Positions 19,100 to 31,761 of a stretch of DNA of 35,544 nucleotides are shown here, in pieces. How positions within the stretch are numbered: position 1 is the stretch's first letter; each line of letters opens with the position of its first letter. Made by a program: the position numbers and the translations under genes. The stretch is from a virus, in the IMG/VR virus record IMGVR_UViG_3300005468_000042, positions 1 to 35,544 of that record, one strand, 5' to 3'. The notes beneath the pieces were generated by a model that searched no databases, was not told the DNA's origin, and worked only from the letters and a program-made list of their open reading frames with translations.

Positions 19100-19314
19100 C
19101 CACCCGCAGGCCCCTGGTGTTACCACTGGGGGCCACCCTCCTGACAGCCGACGAGGCGGTCCAGGCGGTCGTGACCAACGACCACCCGGAGGCGGTCCTG
19201 GGTAGTGTCCAGATGGACGCGGGGCTGGTTACGCTGCTGCGCTCCGGCCAGGTCCTCGCCGTGCGGCTCGCTGACGGCCGTCTGGGGTTCGCCCTGGCCC
19301 CACCCCCCAACTGA
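19096..19314 (+). CDS. Small hypothetical protein, second gene of the rightward operon
   Basis: This 72-residue protein starts at GTG 19096, overlapping the upstream TGA (GTGA), the junction type used all over this genome. It begins VTTRRPLVLPLGATLLTADE, then AVQAVVTNDHPEAVLG and ADGRLGFALAPPPN. It is compact, mixed alpha/beta, with no signal peptide. Function unknown. A strong terminator follows 12 bases after the stop. Confidence 0.65.
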   Translation: MTTRRPLVLPLGATLLTADEAVQAVVTNDHPEAVLGSVQMDAGLVTLLRSGQVLAVRLADGRLGFALAPPPN

Positions 19315-19326
19315 CCCACCAGATAC

Positions 19327-19362
19327 AGCGAGGCCCCCCGTGATGTCACGGGGGGCCTCGCT
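19327..19362. terminator. Bidirectional terminator between convergent genes
   Basis: A perfect 17-bp inverted repeat (AGCGAGGCCCCCCGTGA and its complement) has only 2 bases between the arms. It lies between the rightward operon and the convergent LPxTG gene and can serve both strands. Confidence 0.85.
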
Positions 19363-19379
19363 GCTAGCATCCACGCCCA

Positions 19380-19515
19380 GCCACACCGTGCGGTCGCTTG
19401 CCCCGCCGAGCCTCCACCTTGCCTTACGGTGCCGGGCCTCGCCATGTCTTGCGGTACCAGACCTCTCCTCGGCCTGCCGAAGCTAAACCATACCCGCCCT
19501 TGTCGAGCCGGGCCG
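19380..19515. repeat. Pentamer tract, block 1
   Basis: Plus-strand sequence falls into 5-bp units of consensus NNRCC (for example GTGCC GGGCC TCGCC ATGTC). The units are degenerate but stay largely in register. The block fills the spacer between the terminator and the LPxTG gene stop. Confidence 0.65.
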
Positions 19516-19519
19516 AACC

Positions 19520-20389
19520 TCAGCTCTCGAACTGGACCCGGTCGCGGCGACGGCGCGCCAGCGCCAACCCACCGATACCGGCCCCGATCAGGACCAGACC
19601 GCCGAGCGCGATCAGCGGCACCGGAGCACCCGTAACGGGCAGACTCGGAGTGCCGCCGGTAGTCACAGCACCGGCGGTGCTGGTCTGAGATGTCGAGGGG
19701 GACGGCGACGGCGACGGGCTGCGGGTCGGACATACCCGGCCTCGGATGTCGCCCGCCTTCGCGTCCTGCCCGTCGTTGTTGAACGAGCCGTCGATCCACT
19801 GTTCGACCCAGCCGCTCTTGACGATCTTGTCCACGCAGGTCTGATAGACCCAGGAGTACATGTTGATCGAGCTGCCGCCGAACCCATCCTTCCACAGCAG
19901 TTTCAACCAGTCGCCGGTGCTGGTCGGCTCGGACCCGTTGAAGGTCTTGCCGTCCAGCGCGCTGGGGTCCCAGGCGATCCAGTCGTGCGGGGCGGTGAAC
20001 TTGGCGAAGGTGGCCGCTCCGAGCACCGCACCGTGGACCCCGCCGGCCAGGCTCGCGCCATTGTTGGGGGACCCGTGGGTACCCGCCTGGGTGACGAAAG
20101 TCCCCGTGTCGGTCAGCTTGGCCGTGTACGACCAGGTGTCGATCGCGACCTTCTCGGTCTGCAGGGCAGCCGGCGGTTGGACGCACACCTGCACCGTGCG
20201 GGTGACGGTATCCAGGGCCCAGACGTCGGGGGTGCCGTGTCCGTGGTCGGGGCGGTTCACCAGGTGGCTGGTGACGGTCTTGCAGTCGGGTGGGGGGGTC
20301 GCTCCGGCCACGGTCGGGCAGGCCAGAGCTGCCCCGGCCAGCCCGAGAGTCAGGGCCAGCGCGGACGCCAGCCGTTTGATCGGTCCCAT
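19520..20389 (-). CDS. Secreted LPxTG cell-wall-anchored protein
   Basis: This 289-residue protein starts at ATG 20389 behind AAGGAGG. Residues 1-30 are a Sec signal peptide (KR, then a hydrophobic Leu/Ala core, cleavage near AGA-T). Residues 31-220 form an extracellular domain with four Cys after the signal peptide (36, 69, 185, 220), probably disulfide-bonded, and a GSPNNGASLAGGVHG segment. A Ser/Pro stalk (224-236) precedes the sorting signal LPVTG (250-254), a hydrophobic helix and an RRRR tail. Host sortase would couple it to peptidoglycan. Surface display suggests receptor masking, superinfection exclusion or lysogenic conversion. The ectodomain family is not recognised. A TACGAT -10 lies at 20431-20436 without a clear -35. 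Confidence 0.85.
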   Translation of the reverse strand: MGPIKRLASALALTLGLAGAALACPTVAGATPPPDCKTVTSHLVNRPDHGHGTPDVWALDTVTRTVQVCVQPPAALQTEKVAIDTWSYTAKLTDTGTFVTQAGTHGSPNNGASLAGGVHGAVLGAATFAKFTAPHDWIAWDPSALDGKTFNGSEPTSTGDWLKLLWKDGFGGSSINMYSWVYQTCVDKIVKSGWVEQWIDGSFNNDGQDAKAGDIRGRVCPTRSPSPSPSPSTSQTSTAGAVTTGGTPSLPVTGAPVPLIALGGLVLIGAGIGGLALARRRRDRVQFES

Positions 20390-20454
20390 TTTGGTGGTTC
20401 CTCCTTATTGTGGGGTATCGATAGATCGAGATCGTACCATCTGTGCTGGTCGGC

Positions 20455-21061
20455 GGGCGTACCCTGCCCAGCCAAGACGTGCCACACCTTGTCTCGCCGA
20501 GCGCTGACCACAGCTAGCCGGGCCAAACCGAGCCCCGACAAGGCCCGCCCCGTCCCTCGCCATGACACGCCTAACCATGCCACGCCTTGGCTTCCCATCC
20601 CGGATCCCGCCTGGCCCTGTCTTACCAAACCCCGCCATACCTTACCTTGACCCGCCTCGGGGTACCCAACCTCCCACCTCTTCGTACCCCCCAGCCGAGC
20701 CTTGCCCATCCTGACCGGACCATGGCTTGCCACACCTCGCACTGCCACGACTCGCCCATCCGCTACCCACCCTGGCTCGCCGGACCCAACCTCGCCCCAT
20801 CTTGCCGCGACACGTCGAACCCCACCCCCACCTGGCCAGGTCATATCTTGGCTTGACACGCCGAACCCCGGCACTCCACCCACCATCCCGCCGGGGTGCC
20901 CTGCCTGGCCACACCCATCCATAGACTGACCCGCCGTGACTTACCAAATCCGAACCGTGACACACCGAGCCTAGCCTGGTCTTACCTTACCCAGGCGCTT
21001 GCTTACCACACCTTACAACGCCCAGCCGTGGCGCGGCCTGTCATGCCGCGCCCCGCCCAGC
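20455..21061. repeat. Pentamer tract, block 2 (largest)
   Basis: About 600 bases without a plausible gene. From 20692 to 20836 there are 29 unbroken pentamers of form NNRCC: position 5 is C in 28 of 29, position 4 is C in 20 of 29, position 3 is a purine in 25 of 29, while positions 1-2 are free. The register slips occasionally elsewhere in the block. The minus strand reads GGYNN. Confidence 0.8.
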
Positions 21062-21217
21062 CTAGTAGGTGCCCGCCTCGGCGCGTTCCTTGAGCAGCTT
21101 CTCGAACTGTTCCAGGCGCCACGCCCAGGAGTCTTCACCGGCCTCGACCCACTCGCGCATCCGCTGCACGGCGTACTCGATCTGCTCGGTGGTCATCTCG
21201 TGAGGTGAACTGCACAT
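21062..21217 (-). CDS. Small 51-aa protein embedded in the pentamer tract
   Basis: It starts at ATG 21217 with AAGGAG 8 bases upstream and ends in TAG. The sequence begins MCSSPHEMTTEQIEYAVQRM and continues with REWVEAGEDSWAWRLEQFEK, then LLKERAEAGTY. It is an amphipathic helical hairpin with many Glu residues. Coding potential is clear against the pentamer sequence on both sides. Residue 8 (Met) is an alternative start. No family recognised; a regulatory or protein-binding role is possible. Confidence 0.7.
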   Translation of the reverse strand: MCSSPHEMTTEQIEYAVQRMREWVEAGEDSWAWRLEQFEKLLKERAEAGTY

Positions 21218-21239
21218 CGGTCACTCTCCTTCCGTCGGT

Positions 21240-21616
21240 GGGACCCCCCGCGAGTCCCACACCGCTCCATGCCGAACCTCGGCACTGCTCGCCTCTACCC
21301 AACCCGGTCCTCAACAGGCCAGGGCCCAACCATACCTCGCCCGTCCTAGCCAGACCTAGACTCACATCGCCCGACCCAGCCTGCGCTTGCCAGACCAACT
21401 CACCTGCCACGCCATGTCTTACCTTGCCGGGCCGAGCCGGGTCTTGGCAAGGCTTGTCACGCTCACACCCAGCCGGTCCAGACCACGGCACGCCCCGTTT
21501 GGTGAGCCGGCGGGTTTCGAGGCCCGCCAGCCCTCTTTCGTCTCCGAACCTTGCCGGGCCGAAGCCAGCCCCGGCCCGCCTTGCCGAGTCTCGGCCCGCC
21601 GTGCCAAGTCCCCTGG
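21240..21616. repeat. Pentamer tract, block 3
   Basis: About 375 bases between the 51-aa and 239-aa genes, again mostly NNRCC units (for example CTGCC ACGCC ATGTC TTACC near 21400) with a few register shifts. No gene, promoter or hairpin clearly stands out in it. Confidence 0.7.
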
Positions 21617-22336
21617 TCAGCCCTCCTGGATGGAGAAACCTACGGTGGTGAACCGCCCGAACGTCGGACGGAAGTCACCCAACCCGATCAGCCGGCCCGC
21701 GTCGAACAGCACACCCTGCAGCAGAGTCGGCGAGACATACTCGGGCAGGTTGACCATCAACTGGAACTCGGCCACCCAGCCCGCGTTGAACGCCGGACGC
21801 TGGCGGGTCACGGCGCTCCGCTGGACCATCACCCGGCGGGCGTCCAGATAGTCCCAGTCGTTGGAGCCCATGTCAGCCAGCTCGGTCAGCGAGATGATCG
21901 CCGCCTTGAACAGGTCGAACGCGGACTTACGCGGGGAGCGCGGGTCCTGGCGGAATTTCGCGGCGGTGCACAGGCTCATCCGCAGGTACTCGCCCGGCAG
22001 GCCGATGTTGCCGGGGATCTTCTCGTTGTCGCTGTGCAGCCGGTACACGTAGGACTGGATGTCGTCGGTCTTCTTGGCCGCGCTACCCTTGGCCGCTGCC
22101 GCCTTCTCGGCGACCGCCTCGTTGCTCCAACGGTGGAACAACAGCGCCGAAGTCCCCTCGATCTTGATGTTCGCGATATAGGGGGCGGCGGCGATGATCG
22201 CGTTCTCAGCGTCGTTGGTCGGCTCGCCCAGGGTCTCCAGACCCTTGGTCTGGGTACGCCCGTTTGCGGTGGTGCTCGTGGTGGTCACTGCTCTCCTCTG
22301 GGGGGTCGTGGTCCTGGCCCTGCCTCGGCTAGCCAT
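21617..22336 (-). CDS. Conserved-looking phage protein, unknown function
   Basis: This 239-residue protein starts at ATG 22336 with AAGGA upstream. The N-terminal 45 residues are a Thr/Arg-rich disordered tail. The globular part begins IANIKIEGTSALLFHRWSNE, then AAKGSAAKKTDD, an IGLPGEYLRMSLCTAAKFRQ segment, RSPRKSAFDLFKAAI, and a C-terminal LFDAGRLIGLGDFRPTFGRF. I have an impression of similar unannotated phage proteins, but cannot name a function. It is monocistronic, flanked on both sides by pentamer tract, and next to the RNA cluster. Confidence 0.75.
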   Translation of the reverse strand: MASRGRARTTTPQRRAVTTTSTTANGRTQTKGLETLGEPTNDAENAIIAAAPYIANIKIEGTSALLFHRWSNEAVAEKAAAAKGSAAKKTDDIQSYVYRLHSDNEKIPGNIGLPGEYLRMSLCTAAKFRQDPRSPRKSAFDLFKAAIISLTELADMGSNDWDYLDARRVMVQRSAVTRQRPAFNAGWVAEFQLMVNLPEYVSPTLLQGVLFDAGRLIGLGDFRPTFGRFTTVGFSIQEG

Positions 22337-22339
22337 GTC

Positions 22340-22470
22340 GGTCCTTACCGATGGGTAGCCGTACCCGGCCTTGTCTCGCCTAGCCCGTCCTGACCAGCGC
22401 CACGGCTGACCATTCCAAGCCTTTCCGCACCCAGCCCAGGCATGCCACGTTCAACTCTCTGCCTGACCTG
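22340..22470. repeat. Pentamer tract, block 4
   Basis: About 130 bases between the 239-aa gene and the RNA cluster with the same 5-bp periodicity (for example CTCGC CTAGC CCGTC CTGAC). This is the last block; the periodicity stops at the tRNA-like genes. Confidence 0.6.
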
Positions 22471-22473
22471 AGT

Positions 22474-22536
22474 AGCGACCTGGGGCGGATTCGAACCGCC
22501 ATCCCACACACCTCACACTCGGCTATCGTGGTCGCT
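22474..22536 (-). tRNA. Short tRNA-like RNA lacking a full anticodon/D region
   Basis: The 3' side has a canonical T-arm GGCGG-TTCGAAT-CCGCC. Then three bases and GGTCGCT pair perfectly (7 bp) with AGCGACC at the 5' end. Only 27 bases lie between the acceptor and the T-arm, against about 41 normally, so a D-arm and an anticodon arm cannot both form. A 5' end farther upstream is possible: GACCTGA near 22600 pairs 6 of 7 with CCAGGTC. No anticodon assigned. Confidence 0.4.
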
Positions 22537-22666
22537 CTGCCACATCCCGGTTGCCCATCAGGACCCTATCCCGCCGAGATGCTGAACTACTTCAGGTCTA
22601 CCGCCCTTACTCAAGGGGCGGCAGTCGCCCTGGGACCGGCGAGTGCACCGGCCCCGCGCGACGCGT

Positions 22667-22795
22667 GGGGTAGCCGGGTATCGAACCCGGTCCAGCTACG
22701 TGGCCCACCTCCCGGTTGTCTCGATCAGGGTGGAGACAACGCGCTTTGGGAGTCATTGAAGGCTCGGTCGCCTGCTCGCCTTGGCATACTACCCC
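22667..22795 (-). tRNA. Long tRNA-like RNA (129 nt) with internal insertion
   Basis: Acceptor GGGGTAG pairs perfectly with CTACCCC, followed by A. TA at positions 8-9, a D-like arm TGCC/GGCG, and a T-arm CCGGG-TTCGATA-CCCGG are present. The middle is about 50 bases too long and holds a perfect 8-bp hairpin GTTGTCTC/GAGACAAC inside a CTCCC/GGGAG stem. A CTTCAAT loop is visible, but its stem is poor, so no anticodon is assigned. Confidence 0.5.
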
Positions 22796-22880
22796 GGGCG
22801 GGAGTGTGTGATACTGCTCGCGTGGTAGATCGGCCCCCTCGATGGAGGCAAGGTGTTGAGCTTGATCGCACACCCCCGAG

Positions 22881-22983
22881 TGGAGCGGACGGGACTCGAA
22901 CCCGCACCCCTGCAGCTCTGCCTAGGGACTACTGGGCTCACCCGACCGGTCCGGGTCTGCCCACCCCATTGAGTTACCGCCCC
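22881..22983 (-). tRNA. tRNA-like RNA (103 nt) with an extra hairpin
   Basis: Acceptor GGGGCGG pairs with CCGCTCC (one G-U), discriminator A. TA at 8-9 and T-arm GCGGG-TTCGAGT-CCCGT are normal. About 30 extra bases form a nested hairpin TGGGC-AG-ACCCG-GACCGGT-CGGGT-GA-GCCCA. No standard anticodon arm with U33 can be drawn. It starts 5 bases after the amber tRNA. Confidence 0.5.
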
Positions 22984-22988
22984 ATCGA

Positions 22989-23060
22989 GAGTCGGGTGGG
23001 AGTCGAACCCACAACGACGGGTCTTTAGAGGACCGCGCTCTACCATTGAGCTACCGACTC
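22989..23060 (-). tRNA. tRNA with CUA anticodon (amber suppressor)
   Basis: This 72-nt molecule has a perfect acceptor GAGTCGG/CCGACTC, TA, D-arm GCTC-AATGGTA-GAGC and T-arm GTGGG-TTCGACT-CCCAC. The anticodon loop is CTCTAAA closed by GGTC/GACC, so the anticodon is CUA, which reads UAG. The outermost anticodon-stem pair is C-C. CCA is not encoded. An Arg UCU reading would require shifting the loop by one base and breaking the stem. Amino-acid identity is unknown. Confidence 0.75.
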
Positions 23061-26334: not shown

Positions 26335-27164
26335 CAGCCTCGCCTCCAACCACAGTCCGGGCAGATCACCTGGTAATCGTGCGACCTACCCTTCCCCGGA
26401 GGGTCTGTCACTCCGTGGCCCATCGGGAGCACGCAGACCCGTCCGTCGCCCTCCTCGTCGCCACAGATCTGGATTGGCTCCGGCTCCGGCTCCGGTACCC
26501 CGAACCCGAAGTCGAGCGACCGCTCGACCAGCCGGCCGTCGGGTAGCCTCGACGGCATCCCCCCGCTCTGGTTGATCTGGTGGGTTCGCAGGTACTCCCA
26601 TTGCTCCCGGTGCCGCAGGGCATCCCGCAGGGCGTGATGGGGCGGGTCGATGATCTCGGTCGGGATCGCGTCGATGCTCACCCCGAGGTGTCCACCAAAC
26701 TGTCTCAGGTCGTGGGTGAACCACGGGGCCCAGTCGGGTTTGTTGGTCATCTTGCCCCAACACAGCTGCATCAGCGCTACATGGTCGTAGGCGCCGCAGT
26801 CGGCCCACAGCTGCAGCTCCTGGTCATCCTGGCTGGCCTGCTGTAGGAACTGCCGGACCGCGTTGCGGACCATCCGGCGGGGCATGACCTCGTTGCTGGT
26901 ATCGTCCAGGTGGAAGCTGTGGCCCGCCACATCGACCATCGGCCTGCCCCGGCTATCTTTACGCAGCGGCAACAGCGGGACCACGTTGGTCATCAGCCAG
27001 TGCTGGTGGGCGATCCGCTCATAGGGCCCGTCCTCGGCCACACCGATCTCAATCTCTTCGAGCACCCCATGGAAGGTGTGGCCCACCTCGTCGACCAGCC
27101 CAACCGAGATCGGCTGGAGGTTTGACCCGTCCTCCCAGAACTCGAAGTCGTAGAACACCCTCAT
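26331..27164 (-). CDS. Rv2179c-like DEDDh 3'-5' exoribonuclease with Cys-rich tail
   Basis: This 277-residue protein starts at ATG 27164, overlapping the PurB stop (ATGA). The N-terminus MRVFYDFEFWEDG has the first metal ligands (Asp6, Glu8) in the context typical of Mycobacterium Rv2179c (RNase AS). GAYDHVAL supplies Asp127, and HALRDA (177-182) supplies the His and Asp of the DEDDh set. RNase AS removes 3' adenylate from RNA. The phage protein has about 80 extra C-terminal residues with an acidic EPEPEPE linker and Cys/His positions (ICGDEEGDGRVC, ICPDCGW) that may bind zinc. It could process phage tRNAs or degrade host RNA. Confidence 0.8.
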   Translation of the reverse strand: MRVFYDFEFWEDGSNLQPISVGLVDEVGHTFHGVLEEIEIGVAEDGPYERIAHQHWLMTNVVPLLPLRKDSRGRPMVDVAGHSFHLDDTSNEVMPRRMVRNAVRQFLQQASQDDQELQLWADCGAYDHVALMQLCWGKMTNKPDWAPWFTHDLRQFGGHLGVSIDAIPTEIIDPPHHALRDALRHREQWEYLRTHQINQSGGMPSRLPDGRLVERSLDFGFGVPEPEPEPIQICGDEEGDGRVCVLPMGHGVTDPPGKGRSHDYQVICPDCGWRRGW

Positions 27165-28582
27165 AGCAGCTGCCCCACATCCCACGGGATACCGACCGCC
27201 CCGGCCATAGCCAGCTCGTACCGGACCCGCTCGATCTGATCCCGAGCCAACCCGACCTGCCGGTCCTCCCGGATGATCTGCAGGATCTCATCCTGGCTGA
27301 GCGCCGGGAACTGCTGACTCACCGACGCAGCCAACCCGAACCGGTCCGCCCCGTGTTTCTCGACCGCCTCCCGCAGCACCTCGTGGCCGCGCTCCCGGGG
27401 GATCCCGAGCTTCACCAGCTGGGCCAGGATCCGCCCGGTCGCCATCGGCATCTGATAGGCGACTCGTTCGACTTTGTGGGCCTGCTCGTCGATCTGCAGG
27501 ACTGACAGCAGGTACTGGAAGTTGCGCATGACCGCGTCGGCGGCGAGCATCGCCCCGGGCAGGGCCACCCGGCGGGTGACCGAGTCCGACACGTCGCCCT
27601 CGTTCCAGGTCGGTCCGAGGTTGTCGATCATCGCCCGGTAGCCTTTCAGGACCGCCCGCAGCCCATGGATCCGCTCCGCGTACCGCATGTTGCGCTTGTG
27701 CGGCATCGCCGAGGACCCGACCTGCCCCGGGGTCTGCCCCTCCCAGCACAGATCGTTGCCGGCCATCAGCCGCAGGGTGACGCACAGGTCCGCGATCGGG
27801 GCGGTCGAAGAGTCCAGGTACTGGATCAGTTCGAGGTCCTGGTAGCGGGGGCTGGTCTGGCCGGTCACCCAGGTGTCGATCTGGTCGCCAGCTTCAAACT
27901 GGGCCCGGATCGTGTCGACCCCGAAGATCTCCGTCAGGTCGGCTGCGTTACCGACCGCCCCCATGAACCCCCGGGTCCGGAAGTTGATCGTGTTGCCGCG
28001 TAGCATCTGAGATACGCAGCGGGCGAACCGGCTGGCCAGCAGGATCGGCTGAGCCGGCACGTTGTGGGTCCGCCCGGGGACCACGATCTCGAAAGTCCGG
28101 TCGATCCAGGTGTCCAGGCTGGATAGGATCGCCCGCTCCCTGGACCTGAACAGGTCGAACGCGGTGAACATGATCCCGTGGACGGCGTTCTCCGTGACAT
28201 CGCTGGAGGTCAACCCGAGGTGCAGCTTGCCCCGACTGCCGGCGAGCGCGTCGAACACCTCCAGGTGGGCTTTCAGGTCATGCCGGGTGCGCTGCTCGGT
28301 GTCTTCGATCTTGCGCAGGTAATCCCCGTAGAAGGTGGCGTCCAGCCATTCTTCGCGGTTGCTCTGGCCCTGCATCCGGGCTTTCAACCCGGCCAGTAGC
28401 CGCTCGTGGATCGTCTCGTGGGCCTCGACATCTTCGGCGCTGATCAGCTCGGGCGAGTGGGTCGCCTGGGCTTTCATCACCTCCATCCAGATGGTGCGTT
28501 GGCAGGCCAGCATCGAGTCGTGACTCAGGACCGAGACCATCTCGGGGCTGGCATAACGGCGGGTGTCGGTGAGAGGGATCAT
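27161..28582 (-). CDS. purB: Adenylosuccinate lyase
   Basis: This 473-residue protein starts at ATG 28582, overlapping the previous TGA (ATGA). Fumarase/aspartase-superfamily signatures are intact: TSSDVTEN (125-132), GRTHNVPAQP with catalytic His173, and the flexible loop GSSAMPHKRN (289-298). PurB removes fumarate from SAICAR and adenylosuccinate in purine synthesis. In phages with 2-aminoadenine DNA the same reaction completes dZMP synthesis after PurZ, normally using the host lyase. No purZ-like gene lies in this window. Codon use and GC match the neighbours. A full-length, apparently active enzyme. Confidence 0.92.
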   Translation of the reverse strand: MIPLTDTRRYASPEMVSVLSHDSMLACQRTIWMEVMKAQATHSPELISAEDVEAHETIHERLLAGLKARMQGQSNREEWLDATFYGDYLRKIEDTEQRTRHDLKAHLEVFDALAGSRGKLHLGLTSSDVTENAVHGIMFTAFDLFRSRERAILSSLDTWIDRTFEIVVPGRTHNVPAQPILLASRFARCVSQMLRGNTINFRTRGFMGAVGNAADLTEIFGVDTIRAQFEAGDQIDTWVTGQTSPRYQDLELIQYLDSSTAPIADLCVTLRLMAGNDLCWEGQTPGQVGSSAMPHKRNMRYAERIHGLRAVLKGYRAMIDNLGPTWNEGDVSDSVTRRVALPGAMLAADAVMRNFQYLLSVLQIDEQAHKVERVAYQMPMATGRILAQLVKLGIPRERGHEVLREAVEKHGADRFGLAASVSQQFPALSQDEILQIIREDRQVGLARDQIERVRYELAMAGAVGIPWDVGQLL

Positions 28583-28770
28583 CGCGGGTCCCACTTCCGG
28601 CCGTGCGGCAGATTCAGGCTGACCGTGGCCCGCAGTCGCAGCCAGGTCACCCCGACCCGTACGGTCTGGGATTGGTCGCCCTGGAACTTCTCCCGATAGG
28701 CGTCGACGGTGGGAGCTAGGCCCCCGGAGTTGTCTTGCCAGATCTGCAGCAGGGTACTGAGCCGGCTCAT
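28579..28770 (-). CDS. Small hypothetical protein, 63 aa
   Basis: It starts at ATG 28770, overlapping the upstream TGA, and its own stop overlaps the PurB start. It begins MSRLSTLLQIWQDNSGGLAP, then DAYREKFQGDQSQTVRVGV and LRLRATVSLNLPHGRKWDPR. One N-terminal helix and a beta hairpin are likely. No family recognised. The context suggests co-expression with purine metabolism. Confidence 0.65.
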   Translation of the reverse strand: MSRLSTLLQIWQDNSGGLAPTVDAYREKFQGDQSQTVRVGVTWLRLRATVSLNLPHGRKWDPR

Positions 28771-29364: not shown

Positions 29365-29678
29365 CAGGTGCTCGACTCGGGGATCACCGGTGGGGCCTGG
29401 TTCTCGCCCCACTCCGACCCGGGGATCGGGCCCGCGTCCCGCCTCTGCTGACGGATCGCGTCCTGCCGGGCCTGCCACTCCTGGCGCTGCTTGGCGTCCT
29501 CGGCGAGGGACCGCACCGCTGCGTCCGACCTGATCTGCTCGATCTGCAGCTGATGGGCCATCTGCTGCTGCCGACGCTTCTCCAGGTATTCGAAGATCAT
29601 CGGCAGCCCGGTGAAGATGAATATCACCAGCAAGAAGACCAGCGCCCCGACGACATAGGAGACCGTGCTGCTCATCAC
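29364..29678 (-). CDS. Membrane-anchored coiled-coil protein, 104 aa
   Basis: The start is GTG 29678 or the adjacent ATG 29675; both overlap the stop of the SPFH gene. An N-terminal transmembrane helix (VSYVVGALVFLLVIFIFTGL) is followed by a long Gln/Glu/Arg-rich coiled coil (EKRRQQQMAHQLQIEQI to QEWQARQDAIRQQRRD) and a Pro-rich end. The layout suggests a partner that oligomerises with the SPFH protein at the membrane. Confidence 0.7.
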   Translation of the reverse strand: MMSSTVSYVVGALVFLLVIFIFTGLPMIFEYLEKRRQQQMAHQLQIEQIRSDAAVRSLAEDAKQRQEWQARQDAIRQQRRDAGPIPGSEWGENQAPPVIPESST

Positions 29679-30616
29679 TTCGCCCCGACGATCACCGGGG
29701 TTCCGGCCCCGCCGCAGATGTTGGTGCCGGCGGGCAGGTTCTTGAGCTGGTCGGACGCGGCCAGGTCGCGGATCAGCGTCAGGCAGTCCTTACCCGACTG
29801 GACAGCTCGGACGTTGGACGCTTCCGCGTCCTTCTTGGCGGTCTCGACGTTCTGCCCGGCAATCCGGGTCCGGGCGACCGCCTCGGCGTACTGGCGCAGG
29901 ATCCCCTCGGTCTTGTCGTCGTAGTGCACGTTGGTTGCCTGCACGTTGACCAGTTCGATTCCCCGGGCGGCCAGCAGCGGGGTGAGCTTCGCGGTGATCC
30001 GCTTGCTCCATTCCTCCAGCGACACGTACGGGTTGTCGGCGTCCTTGCCGTCGGCGGACTTCAGGTTCGAGAAGGGGTCGTAGCCGTCGAACGCCGCGTT
30101 GACCGCACCGAGGGTGGTCGGCGACACGTAGTCGTGCCGCATGTCGTCGAACCCACGGTACTGCTTCCACAGGCCCTCGATCTTGGCCTGGTCGCTCTTG
30201 GCGTCGCCGCCGACCACCCAGGTGATGGTGGCGTCGACGTATGCCTGGGACTGGTTGCCGAGCCGGACGGTGACGGTCGGCTCGTTGACCCAGTTGTCCC
30301 GGTCGTCTCTGCCGTCACCGGCGAACCGCAGGGTCTGGTTGCGGGTGGTCCATTCCTCGGTGTTGGACCACGGGCTGATCCAGTGGAACCCAGAGTCGAG
30401 GGTGCCCGCGTAGCGTCCGCCGGAGGTCTGGATGGCCATCGACCGGGCATCGACCACGGTCATGCTCATAGCGAGCAAGGCGATCCCGGGAACCACGATC
30501 AGTGCCGCCCCGGTGCCGAGCATGCCGCCGTTGCCTCGGGCGAATCCGGCCAGGCCCGTTCCGAGGCCGATCGCGATCAACGCGATCAGGAAGATAGTGA
30601 GCAGGATCAATCCCAT
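29675..30616 (-). CDS. SPFH/Band 7 (prohibitin-like) membrane protein
   Basis: This 313-residue protein starts at ATG 30616 behind AAGGAG; upstream in-frame starts overlap the promoter. Two hydrophobic helices (about 2-24 and 32-52) are followed by a Band 7 domain: GTLDSGFHWISPWSNTEEW, NQTLRFAG, VTVRLGNQSQAYVDATITWVV, and a long helix LLAARGIELVNVQATNVHYD with EAVARTRIAGQNVETAKKDAE. SPFH proteins oligomerise into membrane cages or microdomains and control proteases or membrane integrity. Phage-borne copies are known, but their role is unsettled. It is first in a three-gene membrane operon. Confidence 0.82.
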   Translation of the reverse strand: MGLILLTIFLIALIAIGLGTGLAGFARGNGGMLGTGAALIVVPGIALLAMSMTVVDARSMAIQTSGGRYAGTLDSGFHWISPWSNTEEWTTRNQTLRFAGDGRDDRDNWVNEPTVTVRLGNQSQAYVDATITWVVGGDAKSDQAKIEGLWKQYRGFDDMRHDYVSPTTLGAVNAAFDGYDPFSNLKSADGKDADNPYVSLEEWSKRITAKLTPLLAARGIELVNVQATNVHYDDKTEGILRQYAEAVARTRIAGQNVETAKKDAEASNVRAVQSGKDCLTLIRDLAASDQLKNLPAGTNICGGAGTPVIVGAK

Positions 30617-30657
30617 CCGGGACTCCTTCGATTGGGGGTTGTCTATCTCGATCACCC

Positions 30658-30686
30658 ACCGTAGCACAGTGTGTGTCACGTGCCAA
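30658..30686 (-). promoter_or_regulatory. Promoter of the SPFH operon
   Basis: Read on the minus strand: TTGGCA, 17-bp spacer, TACGGT, with GTGC before the -10. About 35 bases upstream of the SPFH ribosome-binding site. Near-identical spacer end to the promoter at 29144-29172. Confidence 0.7.
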
Positions 30687-30726
30687 GCAGGAGTGGTCTG
30701 GCCCACACAACTACACGGAGTAACTA

Positions 30727-31518
30727 CTACTTTGTAATTCCATAGCCGGCCACCAGGCGTGGTGCCGACCGCAGCACAGCGGGTGCCCACCCCCACACCA
30801 GGTGTGTGCCGACCCGGCGGAGGGCCAGCAGCGGGGTACCCCGCTCGACATCCCGGATCTGGCCCGGGTCCAGGTGTTGCCCGAGCTTCGGGTGCAGCAT
30901 GCTGAACACGGAGCTTGACACGCAGTTGACGTGGCAGTCCGGGCAGTGCTGCCCGCCCTGGCGGGTGCCGTCGAACGGCGTCGGGCATTGACAAGTCAGC
31001 TCGGCGGGCGTCCAGCGGCGCTCGTAGGGCCCGAGCCGCCCCGAGGCTGGGGTATCCCCAGCCCGAGCATGGGGCGCTGTGGTATCTGGTGACGCGACGG
31101 AGCCACTCGAAGCCCCGGGTGGGTCACTTAGGACCCCCGGAACCGACGGAAACGTCACGGAGGCCATCTCTGGGGCTCCCGGGGTGGCCCCCAGGCCGAG
31201 CATGGCAACGGCGGCCTGCCCGCCCCGGGCCACCAGGCCCTTCAGCCACAGCTCGTAGGTCCATTTGGCACAGCACGTGTCGGGCAGTAGACCGGGCGGT
31301 CTGGGATGGGCATGACAGGGGCAGCTACGCCAGCCGCCACACCGAGTGCGCCCCGGGAATTGGCACCGGCAGGGATATGGTTCCTCGGTGCTCACCACCC
31401 GACCGAGCTGCTCCGTGGCAGCAAGCCACGTGCCAACTGGTGCGGCAACTGCTGGGGCAGGCGGAGGGATCTGTGGAGTAGCACGGCCCGTGCCACGCCG
31501 TTTGACACCAGGTTTCAT
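30727..31518 (-). CDS. Cysteine-rich putative zinc-binding protein
   Basis: This 263-residue protein starts at ATG 31518 with GAGG close upstream and ends in tandem TAG TAG. Two Cys clusters stand out: residues about 49-83 (YPCRCQF, RCGG, SCPCHAH, TCC) and about 175-200 (LTCQCP, HCPDCHVNC). The stretch between them is low-complexity Pro/Ser/Thr/Gly. The C-terminal 60 residues (MLHPKLGQHLDPGQIRDVER) are ordered. Zinc-finger-like nucleic-acid binding is possible. It directly follows the iteron array, so it may act on it; this is a guess. Confidence 0.55.
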   Translation of the reverse strand: MKPGVKRRGTGRATPQIPPPAPAVAAPVGTWLAATEQLGRVVSTEEPYPCRCQFPGRTRCGGWRSCPCHAHPRPPGLLPDTCCAKWTYELWLKGLVARGGQAAVAMLGLGATPGAPEMASVTFPSVPGVLSDPPGASSGSVASPDTTAPHARAGDTPASGRLGPYERRWTPAELTCQCPTPFDGTRQGGQHCPDCHVNCVSSSVFSMLHPKLGQHLDPGQIRDVERGTPLLALRRVGTHLVWGWAPAVLRSAPRLVAGYGITK

Positions 31519-31623: not shown

Positions 31624-31761
31624 CTGTCCCGACCGGCTTCGGGACAGCTCGGGACAGATTCGGGACAGAATCGGGACAGGTCTGGGACAGATAATGGGAC
31701 AGTTGTAGTCGAGTACTCACTTGCGCAATTACTCTCTGCTGTCGGGACGACACGGGGACAG
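31624..31761. repeat. GGGACAG iteron array with two palindromes (origin/operator candidate)
   Basis: Direct copies of GGGACAG start at 31641, 31651, 31662, 31673, 31684, 31696 and 31755, and an inverted copy lies at 31624-31630. The six central copies are spaced 10-12 bp, one helical turn. Two perfect 8-bp palindromes follow: GAGTACTC (31711-31718) and TTGCGCAA (31721-31728). Between the helicase operon and the next gene, this looks like iterons of a replication origin or a regulator-binding array. Confidence 0.7.

What the first reader, a model, noticed from the sequence alone, without database searches (positions are those of the whole stretch)
19380..22470. About 1.2 kb of degenerate pentamers with strict 5-bp periodicity
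Every spacer between 19.4 and 22.5 kb (four blocks, interrupted only by three genes) is built of 5-bp units of plus-strand form NNRCC (minus GGYNN). In 20692-20836, 29 consecutive units have C at position 5 in 28 cases, purine at position 3 in 25, C at position 4 in 20, with positions 1-2 free. It is not a simple microsatellite because two of the five positions vary freely. It is not coding, because the period is 5. The minus strand has GG every 5 bases (GGN3), which could form two-tetrad G-quadruplexes, or present one contact per half helical turn to a filament-forming protein. No feature type that I know explains it.
Basis: seen in the sequence. Interest (0 to 1): 0.85.

Follow-up and report, generated by a model that had tools for sequence, protein, structure and literature searches.

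The report
Phage VIPR guide-RNA locus, long arrays
The strange 5-letter rhythm is the guide-RNA part of a VIPR system, a recently described CRISPR-like weapon that phages use against rival phages; here it sits beside its partner protein in an actinobacterial-type phage, with an unusually large set of guides whose targets are not yet known.

Summary
Five tracts (243 units, 1,198 bp) carry a 5-bp period that reads GGYNN on the minus strand, far beyond shuffled DNA. They are the guide-RNA (vrRNA) arrays of a VIPR system (Viral Interference Programmable Repeat; bioRxiv 2026.04.26.720920, PMC13142463). The gene between the arrays (21617-22288, minus, 223 aa) is a Vipr protein: its family profile finds the solved SUSP1 Vipr (PDB 36pp) at E = 4e-51, and its predicted fold (pLDDT 92) matches CRISPR Csm3/Cas7 RAMP subunits. 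Found by protein alone, 110 of 114 relatives have GGYNN arrays on the same strand beside the gene. Within this material I tested the published decoding rule (NN pairs, one skipped base): strong natural targets number 58 with a 1-base skip against 1, 1 and 0 with 0, 2 and 3 bases. Several fall in genes of other VIPR phages, among them vipr itself. For the window's own guides no convincing target was found, and small RNAs and binding are untested. The system is a new member of a known kind, notable for very long gapless arrays: up to 122 units, against 9-16 per vrRNA in the paper.

The parts
22313..22446 (-). vrRNA array D, upstream of vipr: 27 GGYNN units
   Evidence: GGYNN HMM, LLR 48.6
21617..22288 (-). 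vipr: RAMP-like Vipr protein, 223 aa, GTG start with AGAGGAG at 22293-22299 (an ORF extended to ATG 22336 would overlap array D)
   Evidence: Profile hit to PDB 36pp_D 'SUSP1 Vipr protein' E 4.4e-51; phmmer 2.9e-8; fold match to Csm3/Cas7
21544..21610 (-). vrRNA array C1, directly after the vipr stop codon: 14 units
   Evidence: LLR 24.1
21504..21533 (-). hairpin GGGCUGGCGGG-CCUCGAAA-CCCGCCGGCUC after C1, candidate vrRNA 3' tail
   Evidence: RNA folding; role inferred, no covariation test made
21257..21494 (-). vrRNA array C2: 49 units with several phase breaks
   Evidence: LLR 84.2
21238..21260 (-). hairpin GUGGGACUC-GCGGG-GGGUCCCAC at the end of C2, candidate tail
   Evidence: RNA folding; role inferred
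21062..21217 (-). 51-aa ORF between arrays; no family, no relative near other vipr genes
20458..21062 (-). vrRNA array B, starts at the stop codon of the 51-aa ORF: 122 units with phase breaks
   Evidence: LLR 212
19520..20389 (-). 289-aa secreted, LPVTG-anchored cell-wall protein inserted between arrays B and A; relation to VIPR unknown
   Evidence: sequence features (signal peptide, LPVTG, TM helix, basic tail) read directly; no Pfam, PHROG or PADLOC match
19371..19524 (-). vrRNA array A, starts at the stop codon of the 289-aa ORF: 31 units
   Evidence: LLR 49.1
19325..19364 (-). 18-bp hairpin closing the array region, probable transcription terminator
   Evidence: inverted repeat I2, folding; no U-run, role inferred

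Best explanation
This is a VIPR locus. Minus-strand transcripts of the five tracts are guide RNAs (vrRNAs) made of alternating GGY and NN. Copies of the 223-aa Vipr protein line up along the RNA, about one per GGY/NN unit. The NN dinucleotides pair with double-stranded DNA that has one unpaired base between dinucleotides (NNxNNx...), so a guide typically reads codon positions 1-2 and ignores the wobble base. Binding represses genes of competing phages. Shown here: the arrays, the Vipr homology and fold, the gene-array linkage in relatives, and the 1-base-skip code in natural targets of related systems. Inferred: expression, processing, protein stoichiometry, DNA binding and repression by this locus, and that its long arrays hold several guides. 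Its own targets are unknown.
For: Vipr: the 47-member profile finds PDB 36pp_D 'SUSP1 Vipr protein' at E 4.4e-51; the single sequence finds it at 2.9e-8 and phage phiSUSP1 at 4e-5; conserved G-loop region GLGDFRPTFGRF; AF2 pLDDT 92, VIA-align Z up to 12.7 to type VII and type III Csm3/Cas7 chains. Arrays: GGYNN on the gene's strand. Positive control: the same detector finds one tract upstream and three downstream of the SUSP1 vipr, as the paper reports (PMC13142463). Linkage: 110 of 114 relatives found by protein alone carry arrays, covering 6.9% of bases near vipr against 0.087% elsewhere. Conversely, of 120 contigs found by the DNA pattern alone, 88 encode a Vipr ORF by profile (partly circular, as some profile members come from these loci), about half by a single-sequence tblastn, and in 87 of 88 the best array is on the gene's strand. 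Code: matches scoring 22 or more number 1, 58, 1, 0 for skips of 0, 1, 2, 3 bases; NN falls on codon positions 1-2 in the readable examples.
Against: No convincing target for the window's own guides: local scan, four exact scans of IMG/VR, 396 actinobacterial genomes. Array lengths (14-122 units) mostly exceed the 9-16 repeats published per vrRNA, and a conserved tail was not found inside the long arrays (hairpins no more frequent than in unit-shuffled arrays). No recognised vap gene. The 58 hits include families of related guides and targets, so the number of independent cases is about ten.
Confidence: 0.95

Rival explanations
1. Decayed or drifting pentanucleotide microsatellite with no function.
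For: Strict period 5; some related arrays are low-complexity, e.g. L046 with 23% distinct units, so slippage or unit duplication may help arrays grow.
Against: Three positions are kept and two vary freely; no six-unit word repeats in the window; same-strand linkage to vipr across 110 of 114 loci; NN words decode to real targets only at a 1-base skip.
Confidence: 0.02
2. A structural DNA element: two-tetrad G-quadruplexes or a binding array for a DNA filament protein.
For: GG every 5 bases on one strand.
Against: About 29% of units lack the second G, while the Y position, irrelevant to a quadruplex, is kept in 89%; the adjacent protein is an RNA-binding-type RAMP homologous to Vipr; the strand matches transcription of vipr.
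Confidence: 0.02
3. A VIPR relic: the protein is intact but the long arrays are no longer processed into working guides.
For: No target found for the window; no conserved tail found inside the long arrays; second G only 71%, Y only 89%.
Against: Related long arrays contain target-matching stretches, e.g. L225 units 1-13 of a 101-unit array; vipr is intact with all residues invariant in its clade; phase is kept over more than 100 units.
Confidence: 0.08

Closest known systems
VIPR of Escherichia phage phiSUSP1 (type II; PMC13142463; PDB 36pp)
   Same: Homologous Vipr (28% identity in the alignment, profile E 4.4e-51), GGY/NN arrays up- and downstream of vipr on the same strand.
   Different: SUSP1 has four discrete vrRNAs of about 7-16 detected units with a conserved structured tail and a vap gene; here five tracts of 14-122 units, two ORFs between them, no recognised vap, high-GC actinophage-like genome.
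VIPR types with staggered arrays of overlapping vrRNAs (PMC13142463, fig. S18)
   Same: Arrays longer than a single vrRNA.
   Different: Type criteria are in a supplement that I could not read, so neither identity nor difference can be stated.
CRISPR-Cas class 1 RAMPs (Csm3/Cas7)
   Same: RRM fold with G-loop; expected to oligomerise along a guide RNA (fold match).
   Different: No CRISPR array found, no cas genes among the proteins tested; gapped rather than contiguous guide; single small RAMP.
Vipr of Phage DSL-LC04 (OR003939, annotated 'helix-turn-helix transcriptional regulator')
   Same: 53% identical Vipr with GGYNN arrays just upstream.
   Different: Arrays upstream only within the stretch scanned; followed by a lysine-rich histone-like ORF.

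Membership tests
VIPR system (PMC13142463) | Vipr protein: single RRM-core RAMP with G-loop and thumb, ~20 kDa, homologous to SUSP1 Vipr | tested here: met
   Profile E 4.4e-51 to 36pp_D; fold match to Csm3/Cas7, pLDDT 92; 223 aa. The thumb was not examined on its own.
VIPR system (PMC13142463) | Alternating GGY/NN tandem repeats flanking vipr | tested here: met
   Five tracts, 243 units, all on the vipr strand
VIPR system (PMC13142463) | vrRNA of 9-16 repeats followed by a conserved structured 3' tail | tested here: inconclusive
   C1 has 14 units then a hairpin; the other tracts have 27, 31, 49 and 122 units; internal hairpins not above unit shuffles
VIPR system (PMC13142463) | NN dinucleotides match DNA targets with a 1-base skip | tested here: inconclusive
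   Met across the related VIPR loci (58 vs 1/1/0), but no convincing target for this window's guides
VIPR system (PMC13142463) | Encoded mainly by phages or proviruses | tested here: met
   IMG/VR record with TerL (phrog_38), SPP1-type portal, small-terminase-like HTH protein and Prim-Pol
VIPR system (PMC13142463) | Accessory vap gene | tested here: inconclusive
VIPR system (PMC13142463) | vrRNA expression, co-purification with Vipr, DNA binding, transcriptional repression | not testable with these tools
   Needs infected cells or recombinant protein
VIPR types I-VII | Type by Vipr phylogeny, vrRNA architecture and vap gene | not testable with these tools
CRISPR-Cas | Direct repeats with unique spacers, and cas genes | tested here: not met
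   No repeat-spacer array among the direct repeats of 19300-22520; ten window proteins, Vipr and its neighbours included, match no Cas model in PADLOC

The most novel reading that the evidence does not exclude
The long gapless arrays are composite: one transcript of up to ~120 units carries many overlapping or adjacent guides without a dedicated tail for each, so a single phage holds roughly 15-20 guides against many rivals. Because the skipped base falls on the wobble position, such guides address conserved protein motifs (the vipr RPAxxAGW motif, a helicase Walker A) and so hit whole families of competitors, including other VIPR phages.
Probability: 0.35. Interest if true: 0.65.

Novelty: new member of a known kind. 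Interest (0 to 1): 0.5.

Why it matters
VIPR was described only in 2026 and is proposed as an ancestor of CRISPR. This locus was picked out from raw sequence alone. It leads to a large clade (34 loci in bacterial genomes, 361 in IMG/VR) with same-strand arrays, and public data from these loci reproduce the 1-base-skip code without experiment. The window carries the largest diverse guide set among the loci I examined, once L094, whose total is inflated by overlapping calls on both strands, is set aside. That makes it a good test case for how long arrays are cut into guides.

Tried and rejected
Hammerhead ribozymes or other known RNAs in the arrays: none in Rfam at gathering or relaxed thresholds. 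Hairpin tails inside arrays: not above unit-shuffled controls. Targets of the window's guides: local scans, four 9-unit exact scans of IMG/VR (none; three), and a 12-unit pattern with up to 3 mismatches in 396 actinobacterial genomes (two hits, both at 3 mismatches, one hit for the reversed control, so chance level). One of the three hits, L274 (GC 43%), matches all 11 units of an in-phase run of array C2 (22 of 22 bases; run limits coincide with phase breaks). The extension beyond the 9-unit pattern has a probability of about 0.017, and the match is not in the wobble frame of the likely gene, so I treat it as probably chance. The idea that MiniFlayer-type satellite phages, whose portals are related, are the targets: no match in MiniFlayer or Mulchroom. 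A reversed-sequence control for the detector was discarded because reversal keeps the period. Single-sequence Vipr scan of GTDB genomes found nothing; the alignment scan found 34 loci. Among 396 actinobacterial genomes only the starting one had a close Vipr.

Full report
1. The observation. Period-5 power is confined to the spacers between 19.37 and 22.45 kb, and the genes between them show period 3. An HMM trained on the blocks recovers NNRCC on the plus strand, with a gain of 277 nats and only ~2% phase slips. A fixed GGYNN detector finds five minus-strand tracts: D 22313-22446 (27 units), C1 21544-21610 (14), C2 21257-21494 (49), B 20458-21062 (122), A 19371-19524 (31). Together they hold 243 units in 1,198 bp. 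Shuffled windows give almost nothing. Read as GGYNN, the tracts have G 96%, G 71%, Y 89%, with both N positions spread over all four bases, and no six-unit NN word occurs twice.

2. The link to a gene. Relatives of the protein at 21617-22336 in viral contigs carried period-5 tracts right beside the gene in three of four cases. In the other direction, viral contigs fetched only by the DNA pattern (RCCNN)n turned out to encode relatives of the same protein next to the tract (about half of 120 by plain tblastn, 88 by profile, partly circular because members of the profile come from these loci). Terminase relatives, fetched independently of both, carry it in 1 of 20. The unbiased test is: of 114 loci found by protein alone, 110 have GGYNN arrays on the gene's strand within -1.5/+2.5 kb, covering 6.9% of bases there against 0.087% elsewhere.

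3. Identity. [quoted passage not shown]). It describes VIPR: a phage-encoded ancestral RAMP protein, Vipr, with vrRNAs of alternating GGY/NN that bind DNA through NN pairs with one skipped base. The window's protein hits phage phiSUSP1, and its 47-member profile hits the solved 'SUSP1 Vipr protein' (36pp_D) at E 4.4e-51. The AF2 model (pLDDT 92) matches Csm3/Cas7 RAMPs, Z up to 12.7, Foldseek E 3e-6. As a positive control my detector finds one array upstream and three downstream of the SUSP1 vipr, as the paper reports from small-RNA sequencing.

4. Anatomy. Along the minus strand: array D - vipr (GTG 22288, AGAGGAG upstream) - C1 - hairpin - C2 - hairpin - 51-aa ORF - array B - 289-aa LPVTG cell-wall protein - array A - 18-bp hairpin. 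Arrays C1, B and A start at or just after the stop codon of the ORF before them. The genome is a 35.5-kb IMG/VR contig with TerL, an SPP1-type portal and Prim-Pol. Its portal is closest to Streptomyces phages and their satellites, and an LPXTG protein fits a Gram-positive host. The host is therefore probably an actinobacterium (inference).

5. Does the code hold in this family? I decoded all arrays in the fetched loci (13,483 units) and scanned 2.7 Mb with arrays masked. Matches scoring 22 or more: skip 0, 1; skip 1, 58; skip 2, 1; skip 3, 0. Scoring 25 or more: 0, 19, 0, 0. Many hits are related guides or related targets; I count about ten independent cases. Examples: L156 to L248, 28 of 30 bases; L161/L167 to the Walker A motif VIPTGGGKTPVM of a phage helicase-like gene in L263, L244, L046 and L094; and L225, whose array encodes the vipr motif RPA-x-x-AGW and matches the vipr genes of L187 (24/26), L200/L202/L211 and L094 (19/20 each). 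The window's own vipr (21799, minus) matches eight consecutive units of the L225 guide, 16 of 16 bases; eight-unit matches occur by chance in this data set, so this alone proves nothing. In these examples the skipped base is the wobble base, as the paper found for SUSP1. The L225 guide lies in units 1-13 of a 101-unit array and the L161 guide in units 10-21 of 25, which suggests that long arrays hold several guides.

6. What is not shown. I found no convincing target for the window's guides. Expression, processing and binding are untested. Internal hairpins are no more frequent than in unit-shuffled arrays, so how long arrays are cut into guides stays open.

7. Verdict. Membership in VIPR is secure by protein homology, fold, array motif, strand and position. 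The finding is a new member of a known kind, with a larger guide set than any other diverse locus examined here (L094 scores higher only because overlapping calls on both strands inflate it).

Noticed in passing
L225:3119-3200 and window 21776-21811 (-): A guide in the 101-unit array of L225 matches the conserved RPAxxAGW codons of vipr in at least five other VIPR phages; the window's vipr carries an 8-unit, 16/16 match. Suggests VIPR-against-VIPR targeting.
   Followed up: partly
L161:6991, L167:6983 against L263:7436, L244:3466, L046:7721, L094:6935: Guides that read the Walker A motif of a phage helicase-like gene (VIPTGGGKTPVM), wobble base skipped.
   Followed up: partly
window 22987-23060 (-): ARAGORN calls a tRNA with anticodon CTA (labelled Pyl), which would be an amber suppressor.
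   Followed up: no
window 22480-22985 (-): Two or three further tRNA-like stretches (T-arm GGTTCGAATCC and GGTTCGAGTCC) that ARAGORN does not call; array D starts right after one of them.
   Followed up: no
window 31638-31692: About five tandem 11-bp units TTCGGGACAGA in an apparently non-coding stretch, possibly an origin or regulator site.
   Followed up: no
window 19520-20389 (-): Phage-encoded secreted protein with an LPVTG sortase signal, between two guide arrays.
   Followed up: partly
window 27161-28594 and 29675-30994 (-): Adenylosuccinate-lyase-like enzyme and a Band_7/SPFH protein in a phage genome.
   Followed up: no
OR003939.1 22429-23046: Vipr homolog annotated as 'helix-turn-helix transcriptional regulator' in Phage DSL-LC04; the annotation is probably wrong.
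   Followed up: yes
L171:8323-8388 (-): Type II hammerhead ribozyme near a VIPR locus in a Phycisphaerales MAG, opposite strand to vipr.
   Followed up: no
L003:11700 to L004:1870: A VIPR array next to terL in one phage matches, 20/22 bases, the terL region of a related phage; below a safe threshold.
   Followed up: partly
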